A DNA stretch of 64,000 nt from Methanosarcinaceae archaeon (GTDB lineage Archaea > Halobacteriota > Methanosarcinia > Methanosarcinales > Methanosarcinaceae), in contig JAIPUR010000001.1 in assembly GCA_020055655.1 (NCBI GenBank), positions 124,001 to 188,000 on the forward strand, given 5' to 3'. The position numbers and the translations under genes were made by a program. Shown piece after piece: positions 3,090 through 28,880 of this stretch; the first letter of the stretch is position 1, and every line of letters begins with the position of its first letter. The notes under the pieces are model-generated. The model saw nothing but the letters and a program-made list of their open reading frames with translations, was not told where the DNA came from and did not search any database.

Positions 3090-3509
3090 TCATCTCACCT
3101 TTCCTAAGATTCCGATAAGCGTTGAAACTTCAGCTTCATTCAGTGAAAGGACCATTCTTTGAGTCAGTTTCAATAAAGCGATCTGCTCACATCGACAGAC
3201 ATTCTGTCCTTTCTCGGTCAGGCAGATATAATAGATCCTGCCATCATCGGGTGATCTCTTTTTGTAGACATATTCCATCCGGATGAACTTGTTAATCATT
3301 TCCGATATCGTAGGTTTGGAGTTCCTTGTGACTTCAGCAAGCTTGCTGAATGTGATCTCTCCATGTTCGTCAATGACCTGCAGATATCTCACCTGCTTCA
3401 TAGTTATGTCCGATGATCCGCATTCACAGAGAATCTCAGAAGAGCATTGGTTCTTAATACTGAGTAAATTCTCAAAAACTATGAATAAATGCTCTTTTCT
3501 CTCTATCAT
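3090..3509 (-). CDS. MarR-family winged-helix transcriptional regulator
   Basis: 139-residue DNA-binding repressor type protein. The middle carries the helix-turn-helix (ITFSKLAEVTRNSKPTISEM, about 52-71) and the wing with the typical DDGR (SPDDGRIYYICLT), followed by a C-terminal dimerisation helix. Several cysteines cluster near residues 22-30 (CSSEILCECG) and another pair at about 109-111; a redox or metal role is possible but unproven. The gene is on the same strand as lon and 64 bases upstream of it. Identical-looking palindromes lie over its own promoter and over that of lon, which suggests autoregulation plus control of lon. The ligand is unknown. Confidence 0.88.
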   Translation of the reverse strand: MIERKEHLFIVFENLLSIKNQCSSEILCECGSSDITMKQVRYLQVIDEHGEITFSKLAEVTRNSKPTISEMINKFIRMEYVYKKRSPDDGRIYYICLTEKGQNVCRCEQIALLKLTQRMVLSLNEAEVSTLIGILGKVR

Positions 3510-3525
3510 ATTTCTATCAGGTTCA

Positions 3526-3545
3526 TTAGTTAGTCATTACCTAAT
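3526..3545. promoter_or_regulatory. Candidate MarR operator in the marR promoter
   Basis: TTAGTTAG-TCAT-TACCTAAT lies 17-36 bases upstream of the marR start and abuts a TATA box on the minus strand (TATATAAT, about 3541-3549). It shares 18 of 20 bases with the element at 3052-3071, including both half sites. Its position over the start of transcription fits repression. Confidence 0.6.
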
Positions 3546-3592
3546 TATATACATGTTGGTCTGGGTATAGAAATATTGTAAAAAATAAAAAC

Positions 3593-4126
3593 TTATGTTA
3601 ACTCTCTCTTCAATATCTTGTGAGCGACATTAAGTTGCTTGAACTTCTCGGTATCTCCAGTTGGCTTGTCGGGATGTAGTTCTCTTGCCATCAATTTATA
3701 TTTTTCATTTATGATAGTGAAGTCAGTTTCATCGTGGTCGCAGTCAAAGAATTTTCTTGCTTCCTGGCGCTTCTGATGGACATCTTTGTTTTCTTTGAAT
3801 TCTGAAATAAAATCATCTATTGTGATGTCTTCTTCAAGCACGCGGTTCGTTTCCATCTCGATGACCTTTGAGAGTACATACATATTTTCCACATAGTTCT
3901 TTTGCATATTGTGGGTGAAATGCATGCGATGATCCCCTATCCACCATGTTGCAGAGGCCTTGATCTTTCTCATTCCCATACGCTCAAGGGAGATCTCAAT
4001 ATCATTGTCGACGATGCCGATCTTTTTCAAAGATGTAATAATGTTATTCCGAAATTGTACAGCTCTTCTGTTGCTGGCACTTTTAACATTCACTTCACCA
4101 ATTTCATGTCCTTTTATTTTAACCAT
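3593..4126 (-). CDS. J-domain (DnaJ-like) protein
   Basis: 177-residue protein with a C-terminal J domain: helix II (INEKYKLMARELHPDK) and the diagnostic His-Pro-Asp tripeptide at about residues 149-151, followed by the helix III region. The N-terminal 110 residues (basic; RAVQFRNNII, MRKIKASATWW) are not a known DnaJ zinc-finger or substrate-binding domain. It should stimulate an Hsp70 partner, but no dnaK is near. Similar N-domain plus J-domain proteins occur in methanogens; the client is unknown. ATG start at 4126. It is separated from marR and from the frd operon, so it is probably monocistronic. Confidence 0.8.
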   Translation of the reverse strand: MVKIKGHEIGEVNVKSASNRRAVQFRNNIITSLKKIGIVDNDIEISLERMGMRKIKASATWWIGDHRMHFTHNMQKNYVENMYVLSKVIEMETNRVLEEDITIDDFISEFKENKDVHQKRQEARKFFDCDHDETDFTIINEKYKLMARELHPDKPTGDTEKFKQLNVAHKILKRELT

Positions 4127-4214
4127 TAATTTCCACTCAGTTTCGTTTTTTTTTACTCCTTTAGTGTTATGCTCCCTTAAATAATCATGTGTATATTTTA
4201 AATTCAGCTTAGTT

Positions 4215-4256
4215 CAAAAAAGAAAAGCAGAAAGAAGTGTATAGACCCAAGTCTAT
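4215..4256 (-). terminator. Terminator of the fumarase-frdAB operon
   Basis: Hairpin ATAGAC-ccaa-GTCTAT (4241-4256) followed on the minus strand by a T-rich tract (plus-strand A/G-rich 4215-4239). It lies about 65 bases after the frdB stop codon. Confidence 0.5.
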
Positions 4257-4320
4257 CTGTCGTACTACAAATAAAATAAAATTAAAGGATGCTTGAATCT
4301 CCCAAAAGGTTTTCAAAACT

Positions 4321-5070
4321 CTATTCCATCTTTCCTCTCAATTTCAAAATACCCTGCGTGGGCGTGACCTTCTTCGGGCAAACTGCCACACACTTGTAAA
4401 CCACATCACATCCCCATACTCCAGAATCTGAATTGATGAATTTAGCCAGCTCTTTTCTGTCCTTTTCTTTGCTTCGTGGGTCCAGATGGAATCTCCATGC
4501 TTTAGCAAGAGCTGCTGGTCCGAGATATTCTCCATTCCTCGCAGCAGCCGGACATGCTCCGTGGCATGTGGCGCATAGGATACAATTGGTGTATTTTTCC
4601 AGTTGTATCTGCATAGAAGGTTCCATGAGTGTTGCCTTTTCCTTAGCATCGGAATTTATCCACGGTTTAATGGAATCCACCAGCTCATAGAAATGATCCA
4701 TATCCACAATTAGATCCCGAATTACGCTTAGGTTTGGAAGTGGTTCAACAAGTATCCCATTCCTGCCTTCGATTATTTCTGATGGTTTTATGGATGCTAC
4801 GCCATCCTTTGGTTCATCTGTAGTCTCATCCTTCACTTCAGATACCTGCGTCCTGCATGCAAGTCTTGGAACTTTGTTAATGAGCATGGCACAACTTCCA
4901 CAAACAGCACCCCTGCAAGAATATCTGAAGCACAGGCTTCCATCTATCTTTTCCTGCACGTGGAAAAGTGCTTCAAGAACCGTCATTCCCGGTCTTTCTT
5001 CAACAGTGAATCTATCAATCCAAATCTGTTCTCTATCCTGCCTTCTTATCATCAACTCAAATTCGGACAT
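4321..5070 (-). CDS. frdB: Fumarate reductase/succinate dehydrogenase iron-sulfur subunit
   Basis: Iron-sulfur subunit passing electrons to or from the flavoprotein FrdA. With the start at 5070 ([10 protein letters not shown]), whose ATG overlaps the frdA stop as TAATG, it is 249 residues. N-terminal plant-type [2Fe-2S] ligands are Cys52, 57, 60 and 72; a C-terminal ferredoxin-like domain has CxxCxxCxxxCP at 163-174 and Cys221, 227 and 231, the usual set for [4Fe-4S] and [3Fe-4S]. Methanogen thiol:fumarate reductase subunit TfrB carries in addition a long C-terminal HdrB-like region with CCG motifs; that region is absent here. No membrane anchor gene follows. The electron donor is therefore open. 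A longer reading frame to 5172 exists but lies inside frdA. Confidence 0.9.
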   Translation of the reverse strand: MSEFELMIRRQDREQIWIDRFTVEERPGMTVLEALFHVQEKIDGSLCFRYSCRGAVCGSCAMLINKVPRLACRTQVSEVKDETTDEPKDGVASIKPSEIIEGRNGILVEPLPNLSVIRDLIVDMDHFYELVDSIKPWINSDAKEKATLMEPSMQIQLEKYTNCILCATCHGACPAAARNGEYLGPAALAKAWRFHLDPRSKEKDRKELAKFINSDSGVWGCDVVYKCVAVCPKKVTPTQGILKLRGKME

Positions 5071-9188: not shown

Positions 9189-9508
9189 TTATGTTCTTAG
9201 ACAAAGCAAAATTTCCAGGTCTTCATCGGCCCGAAGAGCGTGAGGGGCATTTGCTGGCAGGAATATAAAAGTGCCTTATTTCTCTCAGTTTAATTGCCGA
9301 ATAGCGTGAAAATGCCTTTCCCTTTCAGTACCTGAACTACTCCTGTTTTTGTAAATGTGTGCTCATCAATATCTGTTCCGGCAGCAAGACACATCAAAGT
9401 ATAATTGTATCCTTCATCTTTGGCAAGAACCGTACTGAAAATTCCCTCAGTAGGGAACTGCACCAATTTGCTCAAGTCTCTTGCAAAACCCTTATCCTAA
9501 CCTACCAT
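9189..9508 (-). pseudogene. Cupin-domain protein, broken
   Basis: The minus strand encodes two consecutive parts of a small single-domain cupin. The first (GFARDLSKLVQF to GKGIFTLFGN) covers the N-terminal barrel with GTDIDEHT. After an in-frame stop at about 9290 and a frame change, the second part (GTFIFLPANAPHALRADED to LRT) covers the second cupin motif and ends at 9189. An ATG at 9508 is followed by an in-frame TAG, so the start is damaged too. An intact homologue would be about 105 residues. Confidence 0.75.
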
Positions 9509-9750
9509 CTTTATATCTGTCATCCTTCTCTCAAATGTAAATGTTTGATGCTTATATCTTTTCACAGCTTTGAACAGACTCAACAGAAAATACTCCAATT
9601 GATTTTTTGGGGAAAAAGCTGTGTACGCAGCCGCAAATGATATTGAATAGGCATTTTTCTTATCTCTTGCTTATAAATCAATCGAGAATACATTTAAAAT
9701 CGTAATAAGAAAGTTTTAAAAAGTATTACTACACATTTCCCCTGATAATT

Positions 9751-10395
9751 ATGTGTGATAAAAATTGTAATGATAATACTGTTTCACTTTCAATCCCATC
9801 CTTTGAAGATGCTGCAAAGTTCCACGGTCATATCTGCCCCGGTCTTACTATGGGCTATGTTGCTTCAAAAGCCGCTCTGGAAATGCTCGCATCTCACAGG
9901 GACAGCGATGAAGAGCTTGTAACAATTGTAGAGAACGATGCCTGTGGAGTTGATGGAGTTCAAGTACTCACAGGCTGCACCATAGGAAAAGGAAATCTCA
10001 TATTCCAGGATCACGGCAAGCAAGTCTTCACCTTCATTTGCAGAGATAGCAAAAAAGCAGTAAGAGCAGCACTTAGAGCAGATTTCGATGTAAGCACCAT
10101 CGACCCCGGCATCGCATCTCTCCGCTCAAAAGTAATGTCCGGCACTGCAAACGATGCAGAATCCGCAGAATACAAAACCCGAATGAACAATATCTCAGAA
10201 AAGATGAGGTCTGCACCTGCTGAAGATATTTTTGATATTAAATTCACAGATGCAAAGATACCATCGAAAGCCCGAATCTTTAACTCAGTGAAATGTGCCA
10301 AATGTGGTGAAATGGTTTCAGAGTCCCGTGCAAGGGTCCATAATAATGATTTTGTGTGTATTCCCTGTCAAGAAGGATATACTCGTGGTTGGTAA
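9751..10395 (+). CDS. FmdE-family protein with C-terminal zinc ribbon
   Basis: 214-residue member of the FmdE family, named after a protein co-purified with molybdenum formylmethanofuran dehydrogenase. The N-terminal domain shows the HGHICPGLTMGY signature (about 25-36) and a conserved Cys in NDACGVDGVQ; the C-terminus has a treble-clef-like zinc site CAKCGEMV ... CIPCQEG. Actual activity of the family is unknown; a metal or redox role is usually inferred. It stands alone between a pseudogene and a permease, not beside formylmethanofuran dehydrogenase genes. ATG lies within the putative leader, with no strong Shine-Dalgarno. Confidence 0.88.
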   Translation: MCDKNCNDNTVSLSIPSFEDAAKFHGHICPGLTMGYVASKAALEMLASHRDSDEELVTIVENDACGVDGVQVLTGCTIGKGNLIFQDHGKQVFTFICRDSKKAVRAALRADFDVSTIDPGIASLRSKVMSGTANDAESAEYKTRMNNISEKMRSAPAEDIFDIKFTDAKIPSKARIFNSVKCAKCGEMVSESRARVHNNDFVCIPCQEGYTRGW

Positions 10396-10725: not shown

Positions 10726-12033
10726 TTATTCTAAGCTGGACCTTGACCCTATGAACCATTTTTCACCGATAAAGATGAGTACTATGAGAATCACGGATAT
10801 CGCAACTAAAAACATATCTGTGGATGCTTTTGTCATCAGAAGAGCACCAAGGACAACTACATCAAGAATGATTGCTGTGCTCACAATATAAGGGTTTACA
10901 TTAATTTCTTCGCGCATATGACGCAAAAGACCCCAATGTATGATAATATCCATTAATATATAAAAAATAGCACCAAGCGAGGCTATCCTGCTTAAATCAA
11001 AAAATATGGTCAAAAATATGGCGACGACAACTGTGTAAACAAGAGTGTGTTTTTGGATATCTCCTGGCATTCCAAAGTGTTTGTGTGGTATTATCTTCAT
11101 GTCCGTTAGCATTGCAAGCATACGGGAAACCGCAAAAATGCTTGCAATTATACCGGAAACGGTTGCAATAATTGCTAATGCGACTGTGAACCAGAGTCCA
11201 TAATTACCAAAAAAGGGTCTTGCTGCTTCTGCCAGTGCAAAATCCCTCGCCTCGATAATCTCGGGCAGGGTAAGACTTCCTACAACAGCAAAAGCTACTA
11301 AAAGATAAACAATAGCACAGATCATTATAGAAATGATTATTGCTCTGCCCACATTGCGATGAGGGTCCACGATCTCTGAGCCACTGTTGGTAATCGTTGT
11401 AAAACCTTTGTATGCAAGCACTGATAATGCTATGGCTGCGAGATAACTACCTGTGGTGTTATCAAATGTACTAGTGGGTGTACTTGTAAAAGAAAAATCG
11501 GCAACCCATAGTCCAACGATTCCAAATATGGAGATTCCGGTTATTTTGATCAAAGACATAAAAAATGAAAATTTTTCTATCACCACGTTACCAGATATAT
11601 TGATTGCAAAAGCGAATATGAGTAATCCTACACCTAAGATTGGTACAAGAAAGCTTCCTTGGTCGATATCGAAGAGTTGCAATGTATATGTTCCAAAAGT
11701 TCGGGCAACAAGACTTTCGTTGATCACCATTGAAAAAGCCATTAACAACGCACTAAATCCGGTAATTACTCCTTTTCCGTATGCCTTTTCCAGGTACATG
11801 GCAATTCCTCCTGCGGAAGGGTAGGCATTGGATAATTTAATGTAAGAATATGCGCTAAAAGCCGTTACAATTGCACCGATAAAGAATATAAGGGGAAAGA
11901 ATCTTCCAGACAACTCTGCAATTTGTCCCAGCAATGCGAATATACCCGCACCGATCATTACACCGGTGCCTAAAGATACAGCACCAGTAAGTGTCAAACT
12001 TTCTGGTTTATATCGATTCTTTTTGTATCTCAC
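10726..12033 (-). CDS. APC-family amino acid permease
   Basis: 435-residue polytopic membrane transporter of the amino acid-polyamine-organocation superfamily. The first membrane helix holds the diagnostic unwound motif GVMIGAGIFALLG (about residues 24-36), and about twelve hydrophobic segments follow. It probably imports an amino acid or polyamine by symport or exchange; the substrate cannot be read from sequence. GTG start at 12033, with a weak ribosome binding site. Monocistronic. Confidence 0.88.
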   Translation of the reverse strand: MRYKKNRYKPESLTLTGAVSLGTGVMIGAGIFALLGQIAELSGRFFPLIFFIGAIVTAFSAYSYIKLSNAYPSAGGIAMYLEKAYGKGVITGFSALLMAFSMVINESLVARTFGTYTLQLFDIDQGSFLVPILGVGLLIFAFAINISGNVVIEKFSFFMSLIKITGISIFGIVGLWVADFSFTSTPTSTFDNTTGSYLAAIALSVLAYKGFTTITNSGSEIVDPHRNVGRAIIISIMICAIVYLLVAFAVVGSLTLPEIIEARDFALAEAARPFFGNYGLWFTVALAIIATVSGIIASIFAVSRMLAMLTDMKIIPHKHFGMPGDIQKHTLVYTVVVAIFLTIFFDLSRIASLGAIFYILMDIIIHWGLLRHMREEINVNPYIVSTAIILDVVVLGALLMTKASTDMFLVAISVILIVLIFIGEKWFIGSRSSLE

Positions 12034-12498
12034 AGAAATCCAAATTGATTATTGTTTTAATCTACCTTTAATGTTTTCGCATTAAGAGAAAATATCACCG
12101 TGCTTAAACTCATAAGAATTGCTTCAGAAACATGAAAAATATCTGCGTGCATCAGTGTTCATCTGCGGTTCACAAATTATTGATAATAGTTTTTCTACAG
12201 AGGCAAAATAATATTTTTCATTTAATAAAATAATATCATTTTCTAATTATATCCTTTATACATTAGATTTCATTCAAAGGTAAGATTGAATTTTTGAGGC
12301 TAAATGGCACTCCTGTAAAACTTCATGTGTTTCTCAAATAGCAGGAGTTATGATTTCACTGTGGTAAGTTCATTTATTCTTTTCAAAAGATGTAAAATAT
12401 GTGGATAAATACAACAAAAATTGCGAGTTCCTCAATAATCAATTTGGTAGGATAAAACTATATAAGAACAATCTCTAAACTAAAAATGGGTGAGTATT
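12034..12498. other. Intergenic region, 465 bases, no gene seen
   Basis: AT-rich spacer between divergent permease and orphan cassette. It holds an inverted repeat ACTCCTG (12309-12315) and CAGGAGT (12342-12348). The promoter of the cassette is likely near the AT-rich stretch about 12455-12475 (AACTATATAAGAAC). Nothing else supportable. Confidence 0.5.
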
Positions 12499-12813
12499 AT
12501 GGGAGATCAGATTTACCAAGAAGTGAATAATGTGGGAGATATTACGGAGATCAATGAGGAAATTCGAAAAGAGATCAGGAATGCCGATTCAAGGGACATG
12601 GTAACAGAGCTCAAAAGAAGAAGCAGATATCTTGTAGTACTCCTTTCTCCTTATAATCCAACAGGTATTGCTAAAAAGCTCAAGGACAGAGGTAAACTGG
12701 AAAGTGCCCAACAAAGAGCCTGGCAAGAATATGAAAAGACCACAAATGTTGCCAATAAAAACAAACATGGCGGTGATGAGTACTCCATAGGGCAAAAACC
12801 CGATTATGTATGA
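12499..12813 (+). CDS. Hypothetical protein, first gene of an orphan pair
   Basis: 104 residues starting MGDQIYQEVNN. Highly charged, mostly helical, with a central hydrophobic-basic segment (RRSRYLVVLLSPYNPTG) and a C-terminal tail rich in Lys, Asn and Gly. No signal peptide, metal motif or known domain recognised. ATG at 12499 is chosen over a GTG at 12490 because GGTGA overlaps that GTG and sits at the right spacing; a TATATAAG box lies near 12459-12466. Its stop codon forms part of the ribosome binding site of the next gene, so the two are co-translated. Confidence 0.65.
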   Translation: MGDQIYQEVNNVGDITEINEEIRKEIRNADSRDMVTELKRRSRYLVVLLSPYNPTGIAKKLKDRGKLESAQQRAWQEYEKTTNVANKNKHGGDEYSIGQKPDYV

Positions 12814-12824
12814 GGTGTTTTACT

Positions 12825-13187
12825 ATGGCATATAAAGAAACCACTGAGAAGTATGAAGCAGAAACAAAGACATACTGGTTGACATATGAAGTTCCAAGCA
12901 AAGCTGCTGAGGAGCCGGTAGATAAAGCTAAACGTTTCTATATTCCCGGTGAATTGAAAAGTACCCAGGGTCCTGACATATTCGTTAACAAAATGGGGAA
13001 TGAAACTTACGGGATGAAAGTGACCTACGAGAATCCACGCAAAGGATTTGAGGCAGAAAGAGATGGCACAGAATATAATGTCGAACCAACAACAACGACG
13101 ATAACTAAAATCATCAAGCTACCAAAAGAGGCCATCAACGTTAAGTTAACTGATAAAGAGCCTGGATCTGCGATGTCAGTAAAATGA
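12825..13187 (+). CDS. Hypothetical protein, second gene of an orphan pair
   Basis: 120 residues starting MAYKETTEKYEAET. Predicted beta-rich after a charged start (YWLTYEVPSK, KRFYIPGELK, TYGMKVTYEN), with a Thr-rich strand (EPTTTTITKI); this would fit a small soluble beta-sandwich protein. No family recognised. AGGTG lies 7 bases before the ATG at 12825, and the UGA of the previous gene overlaps that site. No export signal. The pair shares no evident link to its neighbours. Confidence 0.65.
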   Translation: MAYKETTEKYEAETKTYWLTYEVPSKAAEEPVDKAKRFYIPGELKSTQGPDIFVNKMGNETYGMKVTYENPRKGFEAERDGTEYNVEPTTTTITKIIKLPKEAINVKLTDKEPGSAMSVK

Positions 13188-24236: not shown

Positions 24237-24302
24237 CTAATTTCGAATAAGCCAGCGAATTATGCTTTCCGATAGCTTTATATGCAGCGGGAACGCCGCC
24301 AT

Positions 24303-25457
24303 ATGTCATTTCTAGCATTCAATTCACGAACCAGTTCTAAACTTGAATTAAGACCAAAACAATGTATTGATGCTGTTCTGAAACCACTTATAGATAATAT
24401 CGACATCAAGATTAACGGTCAACTTAGCTCTAAAGATCTATTTTACACTGCCATATGCATGGCAGTGGATAAGAGTTCAGTTCATTCGGCATCAAAACAC
24501 TATCAAGAGATTCCATGTGAGACATCTTTAAGGTATCATCTCAGGAAACTAAGTCTTGATGAACTTATCCAGGTAAATCAGAGCGTTCTTCTTCAAGGTT
24601 CTATCAGTACTCTAAAACCAGAGAAAAAGTATGAGTTTGCTATTGATTTTACAAATGATCCATATTATGGAAAAGTTAATCCATCCAATGAAGACTACGT
24701 GATACGTAGTCAGGCCAAGAAGTCCACTAACTCTTTTTATTCATATGTATCACTGTCTATCATAAACAAGAATGAGAGATATACTCTTGCAGTTTTTCCT
24801 GTTGAAAGGAAGAAAACAAAGGTTGACTACCTCACTTATTTCATAAACCTTATCGAGGAACTGAATTTCAATATCAAGGTAATTTGTCTGGATAGAGAGT
24901 TCTATTCAGTTGATGTTTTTGAGTTCTTACAGAACAAAGATATCCCTCACATTACACCAGTAGTAAGAAGAGGAAAAGTGATCAAGCAACTGCTTAACGG
25001 GAGAAAAGCAAGGTCTGCTGAACATGTAATGAAGAATGCTCAAAAGAAAGAAGTTCATCTGGATATTGTAATTGATGTGAAGTATCTGAAAGGTAAAAGA
25101 GGCAAATATGGGTGTGAAAACCTTGCTTTTGTTGTTTATGGAATTAAATGGTCTCAAAGAAAGGTTAGTAACGTCTACAGAAGACGGTTTGCTATCGAGT
25201 CATCATACAGGATGAGAAATATCGTTAAACCAAGAACATCAACAAAAGATGTAACTTTGAGATACTTCTTTACAATAATATCGTTCCTGCTGAGAAATGC
25301 ATGGCTCTGTCTCCAGAAAAAGCATTTCACAATAGTAAAACCAGGTCCAATAATCGTTGATGAAGACAAGTTCAGATTTGCCAGGTTTATTCTGTTTGTT
25401 GAAGAATGGCTTAGAAGAAAGTTAAGAATTCAGTTAGTAGTGCAGTGTTTAAGGTAA
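24303..25457 (+). CDS. ISH3-family transposase
   Basis: About 384 residues, full length for the ISH3 group known from halophilic archaea and methanogens. The DDE triad can be placed at AIDFTNDPYYG (Asp), VICLDREFYS (Asp) and RRRFAIESSYR (Glu), the last in the usual helix with following Tyr-Arg. I prefer ATG 24303 because a TTTATATG box lies about 25 bases upstream, which suits a leaderless message; ATG 24282 is also in frame. The frame is intact, so the element could be active. Possible ends are the ATAGCTTT motifs (24272-24279 and, inverted, 25526-25533), weakly supported. Confidence 0.82.
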   Translation: MSFLAFNSRTSSKLELRPKQCIDAVLKPLIDNIDIKINGQLSSKDLFYTAICMAVDKSSVHSASKHYQEIPCETSLRYHLRKLSLDELIQVNQSVLLQGSISTLKPEKKYEFAIDFTNDPYYGKVNPSNEDYVIRSQAKKSTNSFYSYVSLSIINKNERYTLAVFPVERKKTKVDYLTYFINLIEELNFNIKVICLDREFYSVDVFEFLQNKDIPHITPVVRRGKVIKQLLNGRKARSAEHVMKNAQKKEVHLDIVIDVKYLKGKRGKYGCENLAFVVYGIKWSQRKVSNVYRRRFAIESSYRMRNIVKPRTSTKDVTLRYFFTIISFLLRNAWLCLQKKHFTIVKPGPIIVDEDKFRFARFILFVEEWLRRKLRIQLVVQCLR

Positions 25458-25478
25458 TTCAATAGTGGTAGGAACAAG

Positions 25479-25811
25479 ATGGAGAGAAAAATTAGAGAAC
25501 TACTGACTATCAAAAAAGGTAGAATAAAAGCTATTTTTCACATAACATATTCAAAAGCAGAAGACCAGAAACTTGTTTGTCTTCACAAGAAGAACGAAAC
25601 CCGCAGAAAATTAATTGAGGTATTGACAAAAACGCCAGGTATAACAGGACAGGAGCTATCTTCAGAGCTTGATATTGACAAAAGTACTGTGCACTGGCAT
25701 GTCAAAGAGCTTCATGCGGACAATCTGGTTAATTTTGAGAAGGATGGAAGAGCAAAAAAATATTATCTGCAGTCATCTTTGCTTTCTGATATTGATAACA
25801 ACAATAAATAG
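25479..25811 (+). CDS. Winged-helix transcriptional regulator (ArsR-like)
   Basis: 110 residues. The C-terminal 65 (ETRRKLIEVLTKTPGITGQE, DIDKSTVHWHVKELH, GRAKKYYL) form a winged helix of the kind seen in many methanogen ArsR-type regulators. The N-terminal 40 residues are basic and without a known domain; they may derive from the end of the adjacent insertion element, in which case this is the C-terminal half of an interrupted regulator. ATG at 25479 lies 21 bases after the transposase stop, with GGAACAAG before it. Followed by a clear terminator. Target unknown; the protease genes downstream are candidates. Confidence 0.65.
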   Translation: MERKIRELLTIKKGRIKAIFHITYSKAEDQKLVCLHKKNETRRKLIEVLTKTPGITGQELSSELDIDKSTVHWHVKELHADNLVNFEKDGRAKKYYLQSSLLSDIDNNNK

Positions 25812-26201: not shown

Positions 26202-27281
26202 ATGAAAAGAACATTTTCAATATTCTTGAGCATGCTTGTTGTACTAATCATGCTAGTGGGATATGCAGGAGCTGAATCAACGGATTCAATTCAAGATGAA
26301 TTGATCAATGAACTTTCCTATCCTGAATATGGACCAAATTCATTTGATTTATTAAAAGATGACTCAAATGTAATCAAAACCATGGGGAAAGTACCTGGTT
26401 TAACAGAAAACAAAGAAAAATTAGATTGGTTGAATTTAATAGATGCACATATAGAAAATTCTGCTGATGAATTAAAACCTTACATGACAGAATCCGATGG
26501 TCCCATAGTTGGTTATGGAACAAATTATGGAGGATACTTATTCATTGAATTCGACCAGGGTTTAAAAGGTAAAATTGATGATACCACAATCGATAATATA
26601 TATAATTCCATCACTAAAAAAGCAGGCATTCCAGAAATTCCCATAGTGTTCAGATATGGTGGAGAAGATATTGAAGAATCAAGGTCTTCCTACTGGAGAC
26701 CTATTATAGGTGGAATAAAGATCACAGATACATGGTACCGTGACTCTACAGTTTCTTTTGCAGCCGTCGATGATAATGGAAATGAAGGATACGTAATATC
26801 AGGCCATGCTGCACTCGACATGGGAGGCATTGGAGGAACCGTATTTCAATCCTCACTTTCAGCTGGAACTGTTACAGATATAGGTGGATATTATTCAGAT
26901 GCTGCTTGGGTAGAGTATAGTAATGTCGATTCTCAAGTTTATTATACTGACAGCAATATTTTAAGAGATGTATATGATGAGACAGACCCATTGCTAGGTG
27001 CTACAGTCTATAAATCTGGAGAACAAACCGGTTTAACATCAGGTACGGTTACAGAAACATATAAAAAACAACGTAGCAGTTCTTTTGGTTATCTCTATAA
27101 TCAATTCAAAGCTACATATAATTCCGATTCTGGAGACAGTGGAGGACCTGTATTAACAACAACATCAACTGGAAAAATAGTTCTTCTTGGAGTACATAGA
27201 GGGAGCATTACTGGAGATGCTGTATTCTCACCAATTAGTGGAGTAATGAATGACTTGGATATACAACCTATTCATGCTTAA
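26202..27281 (+). CDS. Secreted chymotrypsin-like (S1) serine protease with pro-domain
   Basis: 359 residues: signal peptide (1-24, hydrophobic stretch LSMLVVLIMLVGYAGA), a pro-domain (about 25-160) and a trypsin-fold domain (165-355) with a candidate catalytic triad His202 (ISGHAA), Asp233 (YSDAAWVEY) and Ser313 (GDSGGPV). Secretion and maturation by removal of the pro-domain are inferred from related bacterial and archaeal S1 enzymes. There is no PGF-CTERM or other anchor. GAGGTAAAG lies before the ATG. The next gene encodes a stand-alone copy of the pro-domain, so the two may work together. Target unknown; extracellular peptides or S-layer components are possible. Confidence 0.88.
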   Translation: MKRTFSIFLSMLVVLIMLVGYAGAESTDSIQDELINELSYPEYGPNSFDLLKDDSNVIKTMGKVPGLTENKEKLDWLNLIDAHIENSADELKPYMTESDGPIVGYGTNYGGYLFIEFDQGLKGKIDDTTIDNIYNSITKKAGIPEIPIVFRYGGEDIEESRSSYWRPIIGGIKITDTWYRDSTVSFAAVDDNGNEGYVISGHAALDMGGIGGTVFQSSLSAGTVTDIGGYYSDAAWVEYSNVDSQVYYTDSNILRDVYDETDPLLGATVYKSGEQTGLTSGTVTETYKKQRSSSFGYLYNQFKATYNSDSGDSGGPVLTTTSTGKIVLLGVHRGSITGDAVFSPISGVMNDLDIQPIHA

Positions 27282-27299
27282 GAAAATTGAGCTTCAGTT

Positions 27300-27340
27300 G
27301 GTCAAATTATATTTAAAATGATTTGACCATTTCTTTTTTT
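27300..27340 (+). terminator. Terminator of the protease gene
   Basis: GGTCAAAT (27300-27307) pairs with ATTTGACC (27321-27328) and is followed by ATTTCTTTTTTT. The next gene therefore has its own promoter (TTTATTTATAACC at about 27361-27373). Confidence 0.7.
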
Positions 27341-27416
27341 AAATCTTTAAAAAATCAACAAATTTATTTATAACCAAACACTGTACAATTAAAACCATTC
27401 TTTAGTCTGTGATAAT

Positions 27417-27944
27417 ATGATAAAAAATACACTTCTAACTGTTCTAATCATCTTACTTATACCGGGATTTGCATATGCTGCAACTAATGAAACAGTAAAC
27501 GTAGATGACCTTACCATCCCGGATTATGGTCCTCATATCTTTGAAGAGCTTAAGAATGATTCTGAAGTCATAGCTGTTCGAGGAACAATACCAACAATAA
27601 CTAGCAATAGAGAGAAACTTGAATGGACTGATAAACTTGTAGATTGTTCTTTGAATCTTGACAAAGATATGCACAAATATTTTGAAGATGGATCTATAGT
27701 AGATTTCGGAACATGCATTGGTGGATATTTAAAAGTTGGATTTGATTCAGAGGCACCCGAAAAAATAAATGATGCTGTAATTGATGAAATTTATATTGTA
27801 ATAGATAATCAATGCAAAAAACAAGGAATAACAGATGTACCTGTAGTTTTTGTATGGAGTGAAATTGCAACAGAAGATTCTCCTGGTTTCACGTCAATTT
27901 CACTAGTTCTATGTATGTTGGTACTGACTAAAACTAGAAAGTAA
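27417..27944 (+). CDS. Stand-alone protease pro-domain with PGF-CTERM anchor
   Basis: 175 residues. Signal peptide 1-21 (VLIILLIPGFAYA); residues 33-150 align with the pro-domain of the preceding protease (PDYGPHIFEELKNDSEV, NREKLEWTDKL, DFGTCIGGYLKVGFD, GITDVPVVFVW). The C-terminus is SPGF (155-158), a hydrophobic helix and the basic end TKTRK, the tripartite PGF-CTERM signal processed by archaeosortase and lipid-anchored at the cell surface. Two extra Cys (100, 133) and one at 77 are present. No protease domain. A surface-anchored inhibitor, chaperone or docking partner for the S1 protease is inferred; a decayed protease gene is the alternative, but the sorting tail argues for function. Confidence 0.75.
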   Translation: MIKNTLLTVLIILLIPGFAYAATNETVNVDDLTIPDYGPHIFEELKNDSEVIAVRGTIPTITSNREKLEWTDKLVDCSLNLDKDMHKYFEDGSIVDFGTCIGGYLKVGFDSEAPEKINDAVIDEIYIVIDNQCKKQGITDVPVVFVWSEIATEDSPGFTSISLVLCMLVLTKTRK

Positions 27945-27967: not shown

Positions 27968-28000
27968 GAAAAGAAAAAATAAGACCTTACTGAAGGTCTT
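27968..28000 (-). terminator. Terminator of ftr, overlapping its stop codon
   Basis: AAGACCTT (27981-27988) and AAGGTCTT (27993-28000) form an 8-bp stem with loop of 4 that contains the ftr stop codon; on the minus strand it is followed by ATTTTTTCTTTTCTTT. Confidence 0.75.
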
Positions 28001-28880
28001 TCAGGTGGAACTGGAACTTACCGAGCTTTCCACCGTAGTTTCCTGCTGTGATCTTTGAGATACCAGCAACTGCGGTAGCAGCTTCCACACCAGCTTTCAT
28101 TGCTGCCTGGATCGAGTCTTCATCAAGACCGTTGATCACCAGTTCATAGACTGCTTTTACACCTTCTGGGATCTCGGTGCCTTCTACCTTGTCCCTGATG
28201 GATGGGCAGAACTTCTCGTTTGCAGTTGCCTTCATGAACTTGTAGGTGTTGAATCCTGCCTTTGAACCGCTAGCAACGATTCCTCCTGGGAATGGAGTGA
28301 TGGTTCCGTCCATTGCCTGGATAGCGTCTACTGCAACTTCTGCTGCTGTGAGTGCTGTCATCTGGCTGTCACCGAAGATGAAGAAGTTACCGCCTGCAAT
28401 ACCGGATACAGCACCGATGTTCTCTTCCACGAGGAAGTCGCCTTCCATGATAGGGATGCTGAACATTTTGCGGCCGCCAACTTCTGTTTCGGATTCCATT
28501 CCGTCACCGAAGAATTTGAGCTTGAAACCGACATTCATCTGCTTCTCAGCATCAGGAAGTCCGTTAAAGACTGCTGTTGTTGGAGCTGTGAGTACACACT
28601 GTCCGAGTCTTTCAAGGAGCTGGTGTTCAAGTGATTCGTATCCGAATGTGCAGATCTGGATGTATACACCAGGTCTTCCATCAGGTGTCTCATCAGGACC
28701 CACAAATTTCTCGATACCAGCTTCAGCCGGGCACATAATTACAGATGTACCAAACCCTGTTGCTTCCTGTGCAGCTATCTCTGCCCAGCGCTTTGTTGCT
28801 GCTGTGATAAGCACTCTTGAGATCTTGATCGGAAACGCTTCTGCAAAAGTATCTTCTATTTCTACTCCATTGATATCCAT
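27987..28880 (-). CDS. ftr: Formylmethanofuran:tetrahydromethanopterin formyltransferase
   Basis: Transfers the formyl group between methanofuran and tetrahydromethanopterin (or sarcinapterin), the second step of CO2 reduction or, reversed, of methyl oxidation in methylotrophic methanogens. 297 residues, the usual length. N-terminal [39 protein letters not shown] and [18 protein letters not shown] are family blocks. Acidic and alanine/glycine-rich, as usual for this soluble cytoplasmic tetramer. AAGGGA lies before the ATG at 28880, and CATATATT at about 28912-28920 is a TATA box giving a short leader. A five-fold 11-bp repeat lies directly upstream of the TATA box. Monocistronic with its own terminator. 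Confidence 0.97.

What the first reader, a model, noticed from the sequence alone, without database searches (positions are those of the whole stretch)
26202..27944. Serine protease paired with a surface-anchored copy of its pro-domain
The second gene encodes only the pro-domain, with signal peptide and PGF-CTERM tail, and has its own promoter. A free pro-domain tethered at the cell surface could inhibit the secreted protease near the cell (self-protection), fold it, or hold it on the S-layer. I know of no description of such a pair in methanogens.
Basis: partly seen in the sequence, partly recalled or inferred. Interest (0 to 1): 0.62.

Follow-up and report, generated by a model that had tools for sequence, protein, structure and literature searches.

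The report
Secreted protease with cell-anchored pro-domain partner
A methane-producing archaeon secretes a chymotrypsin-like protease and, from the gene directly behind it, makes a second copy of that protease's pro-domain fixed to its own cell surface; the two-gene pairing recurs across the methanogen family and probably lets the cell restrain, and so survive, its own protease.

Summary
Gene 1 (26202-27281) is a pre-pro-protease of the alpha-lytic/streptogrisin type: triad H202/D233/S313, and its modelled mature domain matches solved alpha-lytic proteases at Z about 26. Gene 2 (27417-27944) is a signal peptide, one copy of the same pro-domain (39% identical) and a PGF-TM-basic tail.

It is not a one-off. 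In 45 good Methanosarcinales genomes, 28 of 36 S1 hits have a separate pro-domain gene directly downstream on the same strand. The partners carry PGF/PSF/SGF-type tails and the proteases carry none. A terminator-like hairpin separates the genes in 18 of 23 pairs. The partners are under purifying selection (dN/dS 0.17-0.42 in eight partner comparisons) and mostly form a clade apart from the proteases' own pro-domains, so this is an old, retained duplication. Twenty-three of the 45 genomes carry such domains but no protease hit.

Most likely gene 2 is a surface-tethered cognate inhibitor (self-protection). Binding and inhibition are inferred, not shown. Surface capture of the protease is the main rival; a trans-foldase is less likely. 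Stand-alone propeptide inhibitors are known for subtilases and papain-like proteases; I found none described for alpha-lytic-type S1 enzymes, membrane-anchored, or in archaea.

The parts
26202..27281 (+). Gene 1: pre-pro-serine protease, alpha-lytic/streptogrisin-type S1, 359 aa, no membrane anchor
26202..26273 (+). signal peptide of gene 1 (residues 1-24, by eye)
   Evidence: sequence; hydrophobic N-terminus in relatives
26328..26660 (+). cis pro-domain of gene 1 (residues 43-153)
   Evidence: profile hit; model pLDDT about 80
26682..27278 (+). mature S1 domain (residues 161-359); H202 codon 26805-26807, D233 26898-26900, S313 27138-27140
   Evidence: Z 26 to alpha-lytic protease
27300..27341 (+). 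terminator-like hairpin (11-bp stem, 27300-27328) and T-tract between the two genes
   Evidence: z -3.7; same feature in 18 of 23 pairs
27363..27373 (+). TATA-like element (TTTATTTATAA) 44-54 nt upstream of the gene 2 ATG; weak evidence
   Evidence: sequence; motif not enriched over shuffles
27417..27944 (+). Gene 2: stand-alone pro-domain protein with signal peptide and C-terminal anchor, 175 aa
27417..27482 (+). signal peptide of gene 2 (residues 1-22, by eye)
   Evidence: sequence
27525..27863 (+). pro-domain of gene 2 (residues 37-149), predicted beta-alpha-alpha-beta-beta-alpha-beta
   Evidence: core pLDDT above 90
27882..27941 (+). PGF motif, hydrophobic segment and basic end (PGF-CTERM-like archaeosortase tail)
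   Evidence: sequence; relatives; ArtA in genome

Best explanation
Gene 1 is a secreted alpha-lytic-type serine protease that folds with, and then cuts off, its own pro-domain. Gene 2 is an old duplicate of that pro-domain that lost the catalytic part and gained a PGF-type lipid/membrane anchor. Displayed on the outer face of the cell, it should bind mature protease as the cis pro-domain does and block its active site, so that protease diffusing back to the producer (or coming from kin or competitors) is inactivated at the S-layer: a tethered cognate inhibitor, or immunity protein. Shown here: the anatomy, the conserved pairing, terminator-like signals between the genes, purifying selection, and the predicted fold of the pro-domain. 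Inferred: binding, inhibition, surface location and the self-protection role.
For: Pairing: 28 of 36 S1 hits in 45 genomes have a separate same-strand pro-domain gene beginning 82-943 nt behind the S1 domain, typically 190-350 nt (hits). It is seen in Methanolobus, Methanococcoides, Methanohalophilus, Methanosarcina, Methanoperedens and a divergent small-genome genus. The tethering is one-sided: of 63 non-protease pro-domain ORFs, 48 meet a strict PGF-like plus hydrophobic plus basic rule, about ten more have such a tail by eye, and no protease has one. Constraint: partner dN/dS 0.17-0.42 in eight comparisons. Age: partner domains of the main clade (60 rows, SH-aLRT 96) are separate from the protease pro-domains (19 rows, 96), and a protease's own pro-domain is generally no closer to the adjacent partner than to other partners. 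Separate expression: terminator-like hairpins in 18 of 23 pairs. Asymmetry: all 18 genomes with an S1 hit have pro-domain proteins, 23 genomes have the domain without any S1 hit, none the reverse, as expected of immunity genes. In this genome the second protease (C44) is frameshifted, and in M. seepicolus one protease has lost its pro-region, yet both partners are intact. Mechanistic precedent: the alpha-lytic pro/protease junction lies across the active site (PMC2829044); SUB1-ProM, a stand-alone propeptide-like protein encoded beside Plasmodium subtilases, is a potent inhibitor (PMC6993865).
Against: No binding or inhibition datum exists, and a complex could not be modelled. The domain also occurs with cohesin and HEAT modules and in protease-free genomes, so some copies may bind something else. 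The residues after the VPVVF strand differ between the protease pro-domains and the anchored ones, so docking could differ. Similarity to the alpha-lytic pro-domain is only at fold level (Z to 3pro_C 4.5; no Pfam hit). The S1+/S1- asymmetry alone is not statistically strong, because most genomes have the domain anyway.
Confidence: 0.58

Rival explanations
1. Surface capture: the anchored pro-domain is mainly a docking site that holds the secreted protease (inactive, or released and active on demand) on the S-layer, so that proteolysis happens at the cell and the enzyme is not lost.
For: Tethering is one-sided and nearly universal; many partners have two domains, and some loci have two or three partner genes behind one protease (L044, L048, L049, L053); the same domain sits in anchored cohesin and in HEAT proteins; one protease of this genome may carry a dockerin (weak).
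Against: A pro-domain that docks in the cis manner would block the active site, so retention and inhibition come together; orphan partners in protease-free genomes would be useless unless they capture other cells' proteases.
Confidence: 0.2
2. Trans-acting foldase: gene 2 helps fold the protease after export.
For: Alpha-lytic-type proteases depend on a pro-region that accelerates folding about 10^9-fold (PMC2829044), and pro-regions of that enzyme are known to work in trans (established knowledge).
Against: Every intact protease paired with a partner has its own pro-domain in cis. The protease copy without one, in M. seepicolus, also lacks its signal peptide and looks like a remnant. A membrane anchor and orphan copies are not needed for folding.
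Confidence: 0.07
3. General binding module: the domain is a widespread surface-protein interaction domain, used as a pro-domain in proteases but with an unrelated ligand in anchored proteins.
For: Domain found in 82 of 186 genomes of the order but S1 in only 52; cohesin and HEAT architectures; orphan genes next to unrelated genes.
Against: Does not explain why most S1 genes of the family are followed by one, nor why the arrangement recurs in divergent protease subfamilies and was apparently rebuilt in Methanoperedens (89% identical neighbours, L061).
Confidence: 0.13
4. Gene 2 is a decaying truncated duplicate of the protease gene.
For: It lacks the catalytic domain.
Against: dN/dS 0.17 against the M. 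seepicolus counterpart (dS is near saturation, 1.5), gained anchor shared with dozens of relatives, conserved 1- and 2-domain architectures.
Confidence: 0.02

Closest known systems
SUB1-ProM of Plasmodium (stand-alone subtilisin propeptide-like inhibitor; PMC6993865)
   Same: Stand-alone propeptide-like gene next to the protease genes whose pro-domain it mimics; the purified protein is a potent selective inhibitor.
   Different: Subtilase (S8) rather than alpha-lytic-type S1; eukaryote; not described as membrane-anchored.
Propeptide-like inhibitor families I9 (POIA1, yeast PBI2) and I29 (CTLA-2, crammer, BCPI; PMC4089206)
   Same: Inhibitors that are free copies of a protease pro-domain.
   Different: They target subtilases and papain-like proteases; soluble; not gene-paired with an anchor in archaea (I9 details from memory).
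Alpha-lytic protease / streptogrisin pro-proteases (2alp, 1hpg; pro-region complex 3pro)
   Same: Mature domain Z about 26 over about 180 residues; N-terminal pro-domain; pro-domain model has the alpha-lytic prodomain-like arrangement (3pro_C, 4hlb in the list).
   Different: Methanogen pro-domain is a single domain without a hit to the Pfam model PF02983; bacterial enzymes are not known to me with an anchored pro-domain partner.
NARROW LEAF 1 (rice NAL1, 8pmi)
   Same: Solved structure that aligns over pro-domain plus protease together (model residues 75-359, 264 aligned, Z 22, rmsd 4.1).
   Different: Plant protein in one chain; no separate anchored copy known to me.

Membership tests
Alpha-lytic/streptogrisin-type S1 serine protease | chymotrypsin fold closest to bacterial alpha-lytic/streptogrisin enzymes | tested here: met
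   AF2 model, mature part mostly pLDDT 80-96; VIA-align Z 22.0-26.8 over 173-184 residues to these enzymes, HtrA/Deg proteases 16-17; phmmer E 3e-4 to SGPA
Alpha-lytic/streptogrisin-type S1 serine protease | His-Asp-Ser triad with GDSG | tested here: met
   H42, D73, S153 of the mature domain invariant in 21 sequences
Alpha-lytic/streptogrisin-type S1 serine protease | secreted, active protease matured by removal of the pro-region | not testable with these tools
   hydrophobic N-terminus present; activity needs an assay
Pro_Al_protease (PF02983) pro-domain | hit to the Pfam profile | tested here: not met
   no hit at E <= 1 in gene 1 or gene 2; the search of 40 genomes of the order also found none, but the control genomes were empty too
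Pro_Al_protease (PF02983) pro-domain | fold of the alpha-lytic pro-region C-terminal domain | tested here: inconclusive
   3pro_C Z 4.5 (69 residues, 3.0 A) and 4hlb Z 4.9 among hits, none at Z 8 or more; Foldseek no hit at E <= 0.001
Stand-alone propeptide-like protease inhibitor | homologous to the pro-domain of a protease, without a catalytic domain | tested here: met
   BLASTP E 3e-28 to gene 1 residues 20-160 only
Stand-alone propeptide-like protease inhibitor | inhibits the cognate protease | not testable with these tools
   needs purified proteins
PGF-CTERM / archaeosortase A substrate | C-terminal PGF motif, hydrophobic segment, basic end | tested here: met
   SPGFTSISLVLCMLVLTKTRK; 48 of 63 relatives pass a strict rule
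PGF-CTERM / archaeosortase A substrate | hit to a curated PGF-CTERM model | tested here: not met
   none for gene 2 in Pfam at E <= 1 or NCBIfam at E <= 5, only Heimdall-CTERM at E 1.7; so only 'PGF-CTERM-like' is claimed
PGF-CTERM / archaeosortase A substrate | archaeosortase A encoded in the genome | tested here: met
   TIGR04125, 266 bits against a cut-off of 75

The most novel reading that the evidence does not exclude
A protease-immunity system of methanogens: secreted alpha-lytic-type proteases serve partly as weapons or public-goods enzymes in mixed communities, producers carry anchored cognate pro-domains as immunity, and protease-free relatives keep orphan anchored pro-domains as defence against neighbours.
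Probability: 0.2. Interest if true: 0.78.

Novelty: new variant of a known kind. Interest (0 to 1): 0.56.

Why it matters
Methanogens are not thought of as protease secretors; a 2008 survey listed no trypsin-family proteins for Methanosarcina or Methanococcoides (PMC2605481). A conserved protease plus tethered pro-domain module would show how an S-layer-only cell lives with its own extracellular protease, extends stand-alone pro-domain inhibitors to S1 enzymes and to anchored proteins, and gives a simple testable pair. The orphan copies make a community-level immunity hypothesis testable.

Tried and rejected
Relaxed-selection or pseudogene reading of gene 2: rejected by dN/dS and conserved architecture. 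Recent local duplication as the general origin: rejected by the tree and by neighbour identities, except Methanoperedens L061 (89% identical). M. seepicolus protease without pro-domain (L045 4961-5590) as proof of trans action: upstream frames show no pro-domain and the signal peptide is gone as well, so it looks like a 5'-truncated remnant. Sequence search of the PDB with the pro-domain profile gave only chance-level hits. hhalign of the pro-domain profile against one Geoglobus pro-region gave nothing. Pfam PF02983 in 40 genomes of the order: none, control empty. TATA-box enrichment upstream of partners: none over shuffles. The paper searches found nothing describing the pair; only part of the literature is held.

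Full report
Observation. The window (genus Methanolobus: the same-genus genome G117 is M. profundi by its 141,410-base contig) encodes at 26202-27281 a 359-aa pre-pro-protease and at 27417-27944 a 175-aa protein. BLASTP aligns gene 2 only with the pro-region of gene 1 (39% identity over 145 residues, E 3e-28). Gene 2 ends with SPGF, a hydrophobic segment and KTRK; the genome encodes archaeosortase A. Curated PGF-CTERM models miss this particular tail, so I call it PGF-CTERM-like.

What gene 1 is. Pfam sees only a sub-threshold trypsin-like match, but phmmer against solved structures gives SGPA and alpha-lytic protease. The AF2 model (mean pLDDT 79, mature part mostly 80-96) aligns with streptogrisin/alpha-lytic proteases at Z 22.0-26.8, well above HtrA-type proteases at 16-17. 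The catalytic His, Asp and Ser are invariant in 21 relatives. Rice NAL1 aligns over the pro-domain and the protease together (264 residues, Z 22, rmsd 4.1), which supports the predicted placing of the pro-domain on the protease.

What gene 2 is. Its AF2 model is confident over the domain (pLDDT above 90): beta-alpha-alpha-beta-beta-alpha-beta. No solved structure reaches Z 8. The list holds the alpha-lytic pro-region itself (3pro_C, Z 4.5) and an 'alpha-lytic protease prodomain-like' protein (4hlb, Z 4.9) among ribosomal S3 (KH), OsmC-like and DUF59-type folds. From memory, SCOP groups several of these under the alpha-lytic prodomain-like fold. The kinship is therefore fold-level only; the Pfam model PF02983 does not hit.

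The domain is a family. This genome has 12 copies in 8 proteins (loci read): the window pair; a second locus on C44 with a frameshifted protease and an intact 290-aa two-domain partner; a third protease (C22, weak dockerin-like tail) followed by a 317-aa two-domain anchored protein; a solitary 345-aa two-domain anchored protein; and a 512-aa cohesin + two pro-domains + PGF-CTERM protein. In the order, 82 of 186 genomes have the domain and 52 have an S1 hit; weaker relatives are scattered through the phylum (19 of 136 genera in the sample).

The pair is a module. In 45 high-quality genomes I compared the hit lists. Of 36 S1 hits, 28 have their own N-terminal pro-domain within reach of the profile, and 28 are followed on the same strand by a separate ORF with the pro-domain. 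With roughly six such domains per 3-Mb genome, chance would place one there in well under 1% of cases (my estimate). Reading 40 regions and 20 more shows the order signal peptide-pro-S1, then signal peptide-pro(1 or 2)-PGF tail, in Methanolobus, Methanococcoides, Methanohalophilus, Methanosarcina, Methanoperedens and a small-genome genus, across strongly diverged protease subfamilies.

Selection and age. Partner dN/dS was 0.17-0.42 in eight comparisons, counting one partner against an orphan ortholog and leaving two orphan-orphan comparisons (0.30, 0.33) inside that range; one more, between two paralogs within one genome (G161), gave 0.49. Partners evolve faster than the proteases in some pairs of species (0.29 against 0.07; 0.42 against 0.07). 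In the domain tree (113 columns, many forks unresolved) the main partner domains form one set of 60 rows (SH-aLRT 96) apart from the protease pro-domains (19 rows, 96), with first domains (23 rows, 96) and second/single domains (33 rows, 93) mostly separate. A protease's own pro-domain is generally no closer to the adjacent partner than to other partners. Methanoperedens L061 is the exception (89% identical): a recent re-creation or a gene conversion.

Expression. A terminator-like hairpin with T-tract lies between the genes here and in 18 of 23 tested pairs at p <= 0.05 against shuffles, so separate transcription is likely and conserved. TATA-like words alone prove nothing in this AT-rich DNA.

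How it most likely works. In alpha-lytic protease the junction with the pro-region lies across the active site (PMC2829044), and archaeal subtilase propeptides can be very tight, selective inhibitors of the cognate enzyme (PMC10580911). A second copy of that domain, fixed to the producer's surface, is best read as a tethered inhibitor. In favour are the one-sided tethering, separate expression, partners that stay intact where a protease copy has decayed, and orphan partners in genomes without any S1 hit (23 of 45), while no genome has the S1 hit without the domain. Capture of the enzyme on the surface is physically the same binding event and cannot be separated from inhibition by sequence. A foldase role is unlikely since the paired proteases keep a cis pro-domain. 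Binding, inhibition and location are inferences.

Known or new. The closest system that works the same way is SUB1-ProM in Plasmodium, a stand-alone propeptide-like protein encoded beside subtilases and a potent inhibitor of SUB1 (PMC6993865); I9 and I29 inhibitors are the general class (PMC4089206). What differs here is the protease family (S1, alpha-lytic type), the cell-surface anchor, the archaeal setting and the family-wide gene pairing. I rate it a new variant of a known kind.

Noticed in passing
L010:4196-5734 (G000 C11); L115, L116: Conserved anchored protein with a cohesin domain followed by two copies of the pro-domain; similar 500-600-aa proteins in many genomes, although two Methanosarcina ones (L118, L119) gave no Pfam cohesin hit.
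   Followed up: partly
L121 (G135), L122 (G178), L120 (G095): Proteins with HEAT repeats followed by one pro-domain; two of the three end in a hydrophobic tail.
   Followed up: partly
L009:7093-9136 (G000 C44) and L009:6890-7036, 9429-10028, 12772-13185; L043:8147-8284: Second protease locus with a frameshifted protease and an intact partner is flanked by fragments of the ftr gene; M. profundi also has an ftr fragment behind its partner, and the window pair lies next to intact ftr (27987-28880). The module seems to move with ftr 3' parts.
   Followed up: partly
24282-25811: DDE transposase (PF01609) lies against an HTH regulator remnant (25479-25811) that matches the C-terminal half of a 265-aa double-HTH regulator with an N-terminal hydrophobic part at L009:1040-1837; the N-terminal half is not in the window.
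   Followed up: partly
G086 (L126, L127), G084 (L124), G088 (L125), G089 (L128): A small-genome genus of the same family has diverged copies of the pair; one 1.7-Mb genome has 16 pro-domains and 9 S1 hits. Genus not identified.
   Followed up: partly
L009:139-1047, 3370-4569, 11220-12521: C44 of this genome looks like a secreted-peptidase island: by eye, a subtilase-like, a C39-like and a zinc-metalloprotease-like gene near the S1 remnant.
   Followed up: no
G000 C11:11924-13615: 786-aa frame with three cohesin domains close to the cohesin/pro-domain gene; only two clear dockerins elsewhere in the genome.
   Followed up: no
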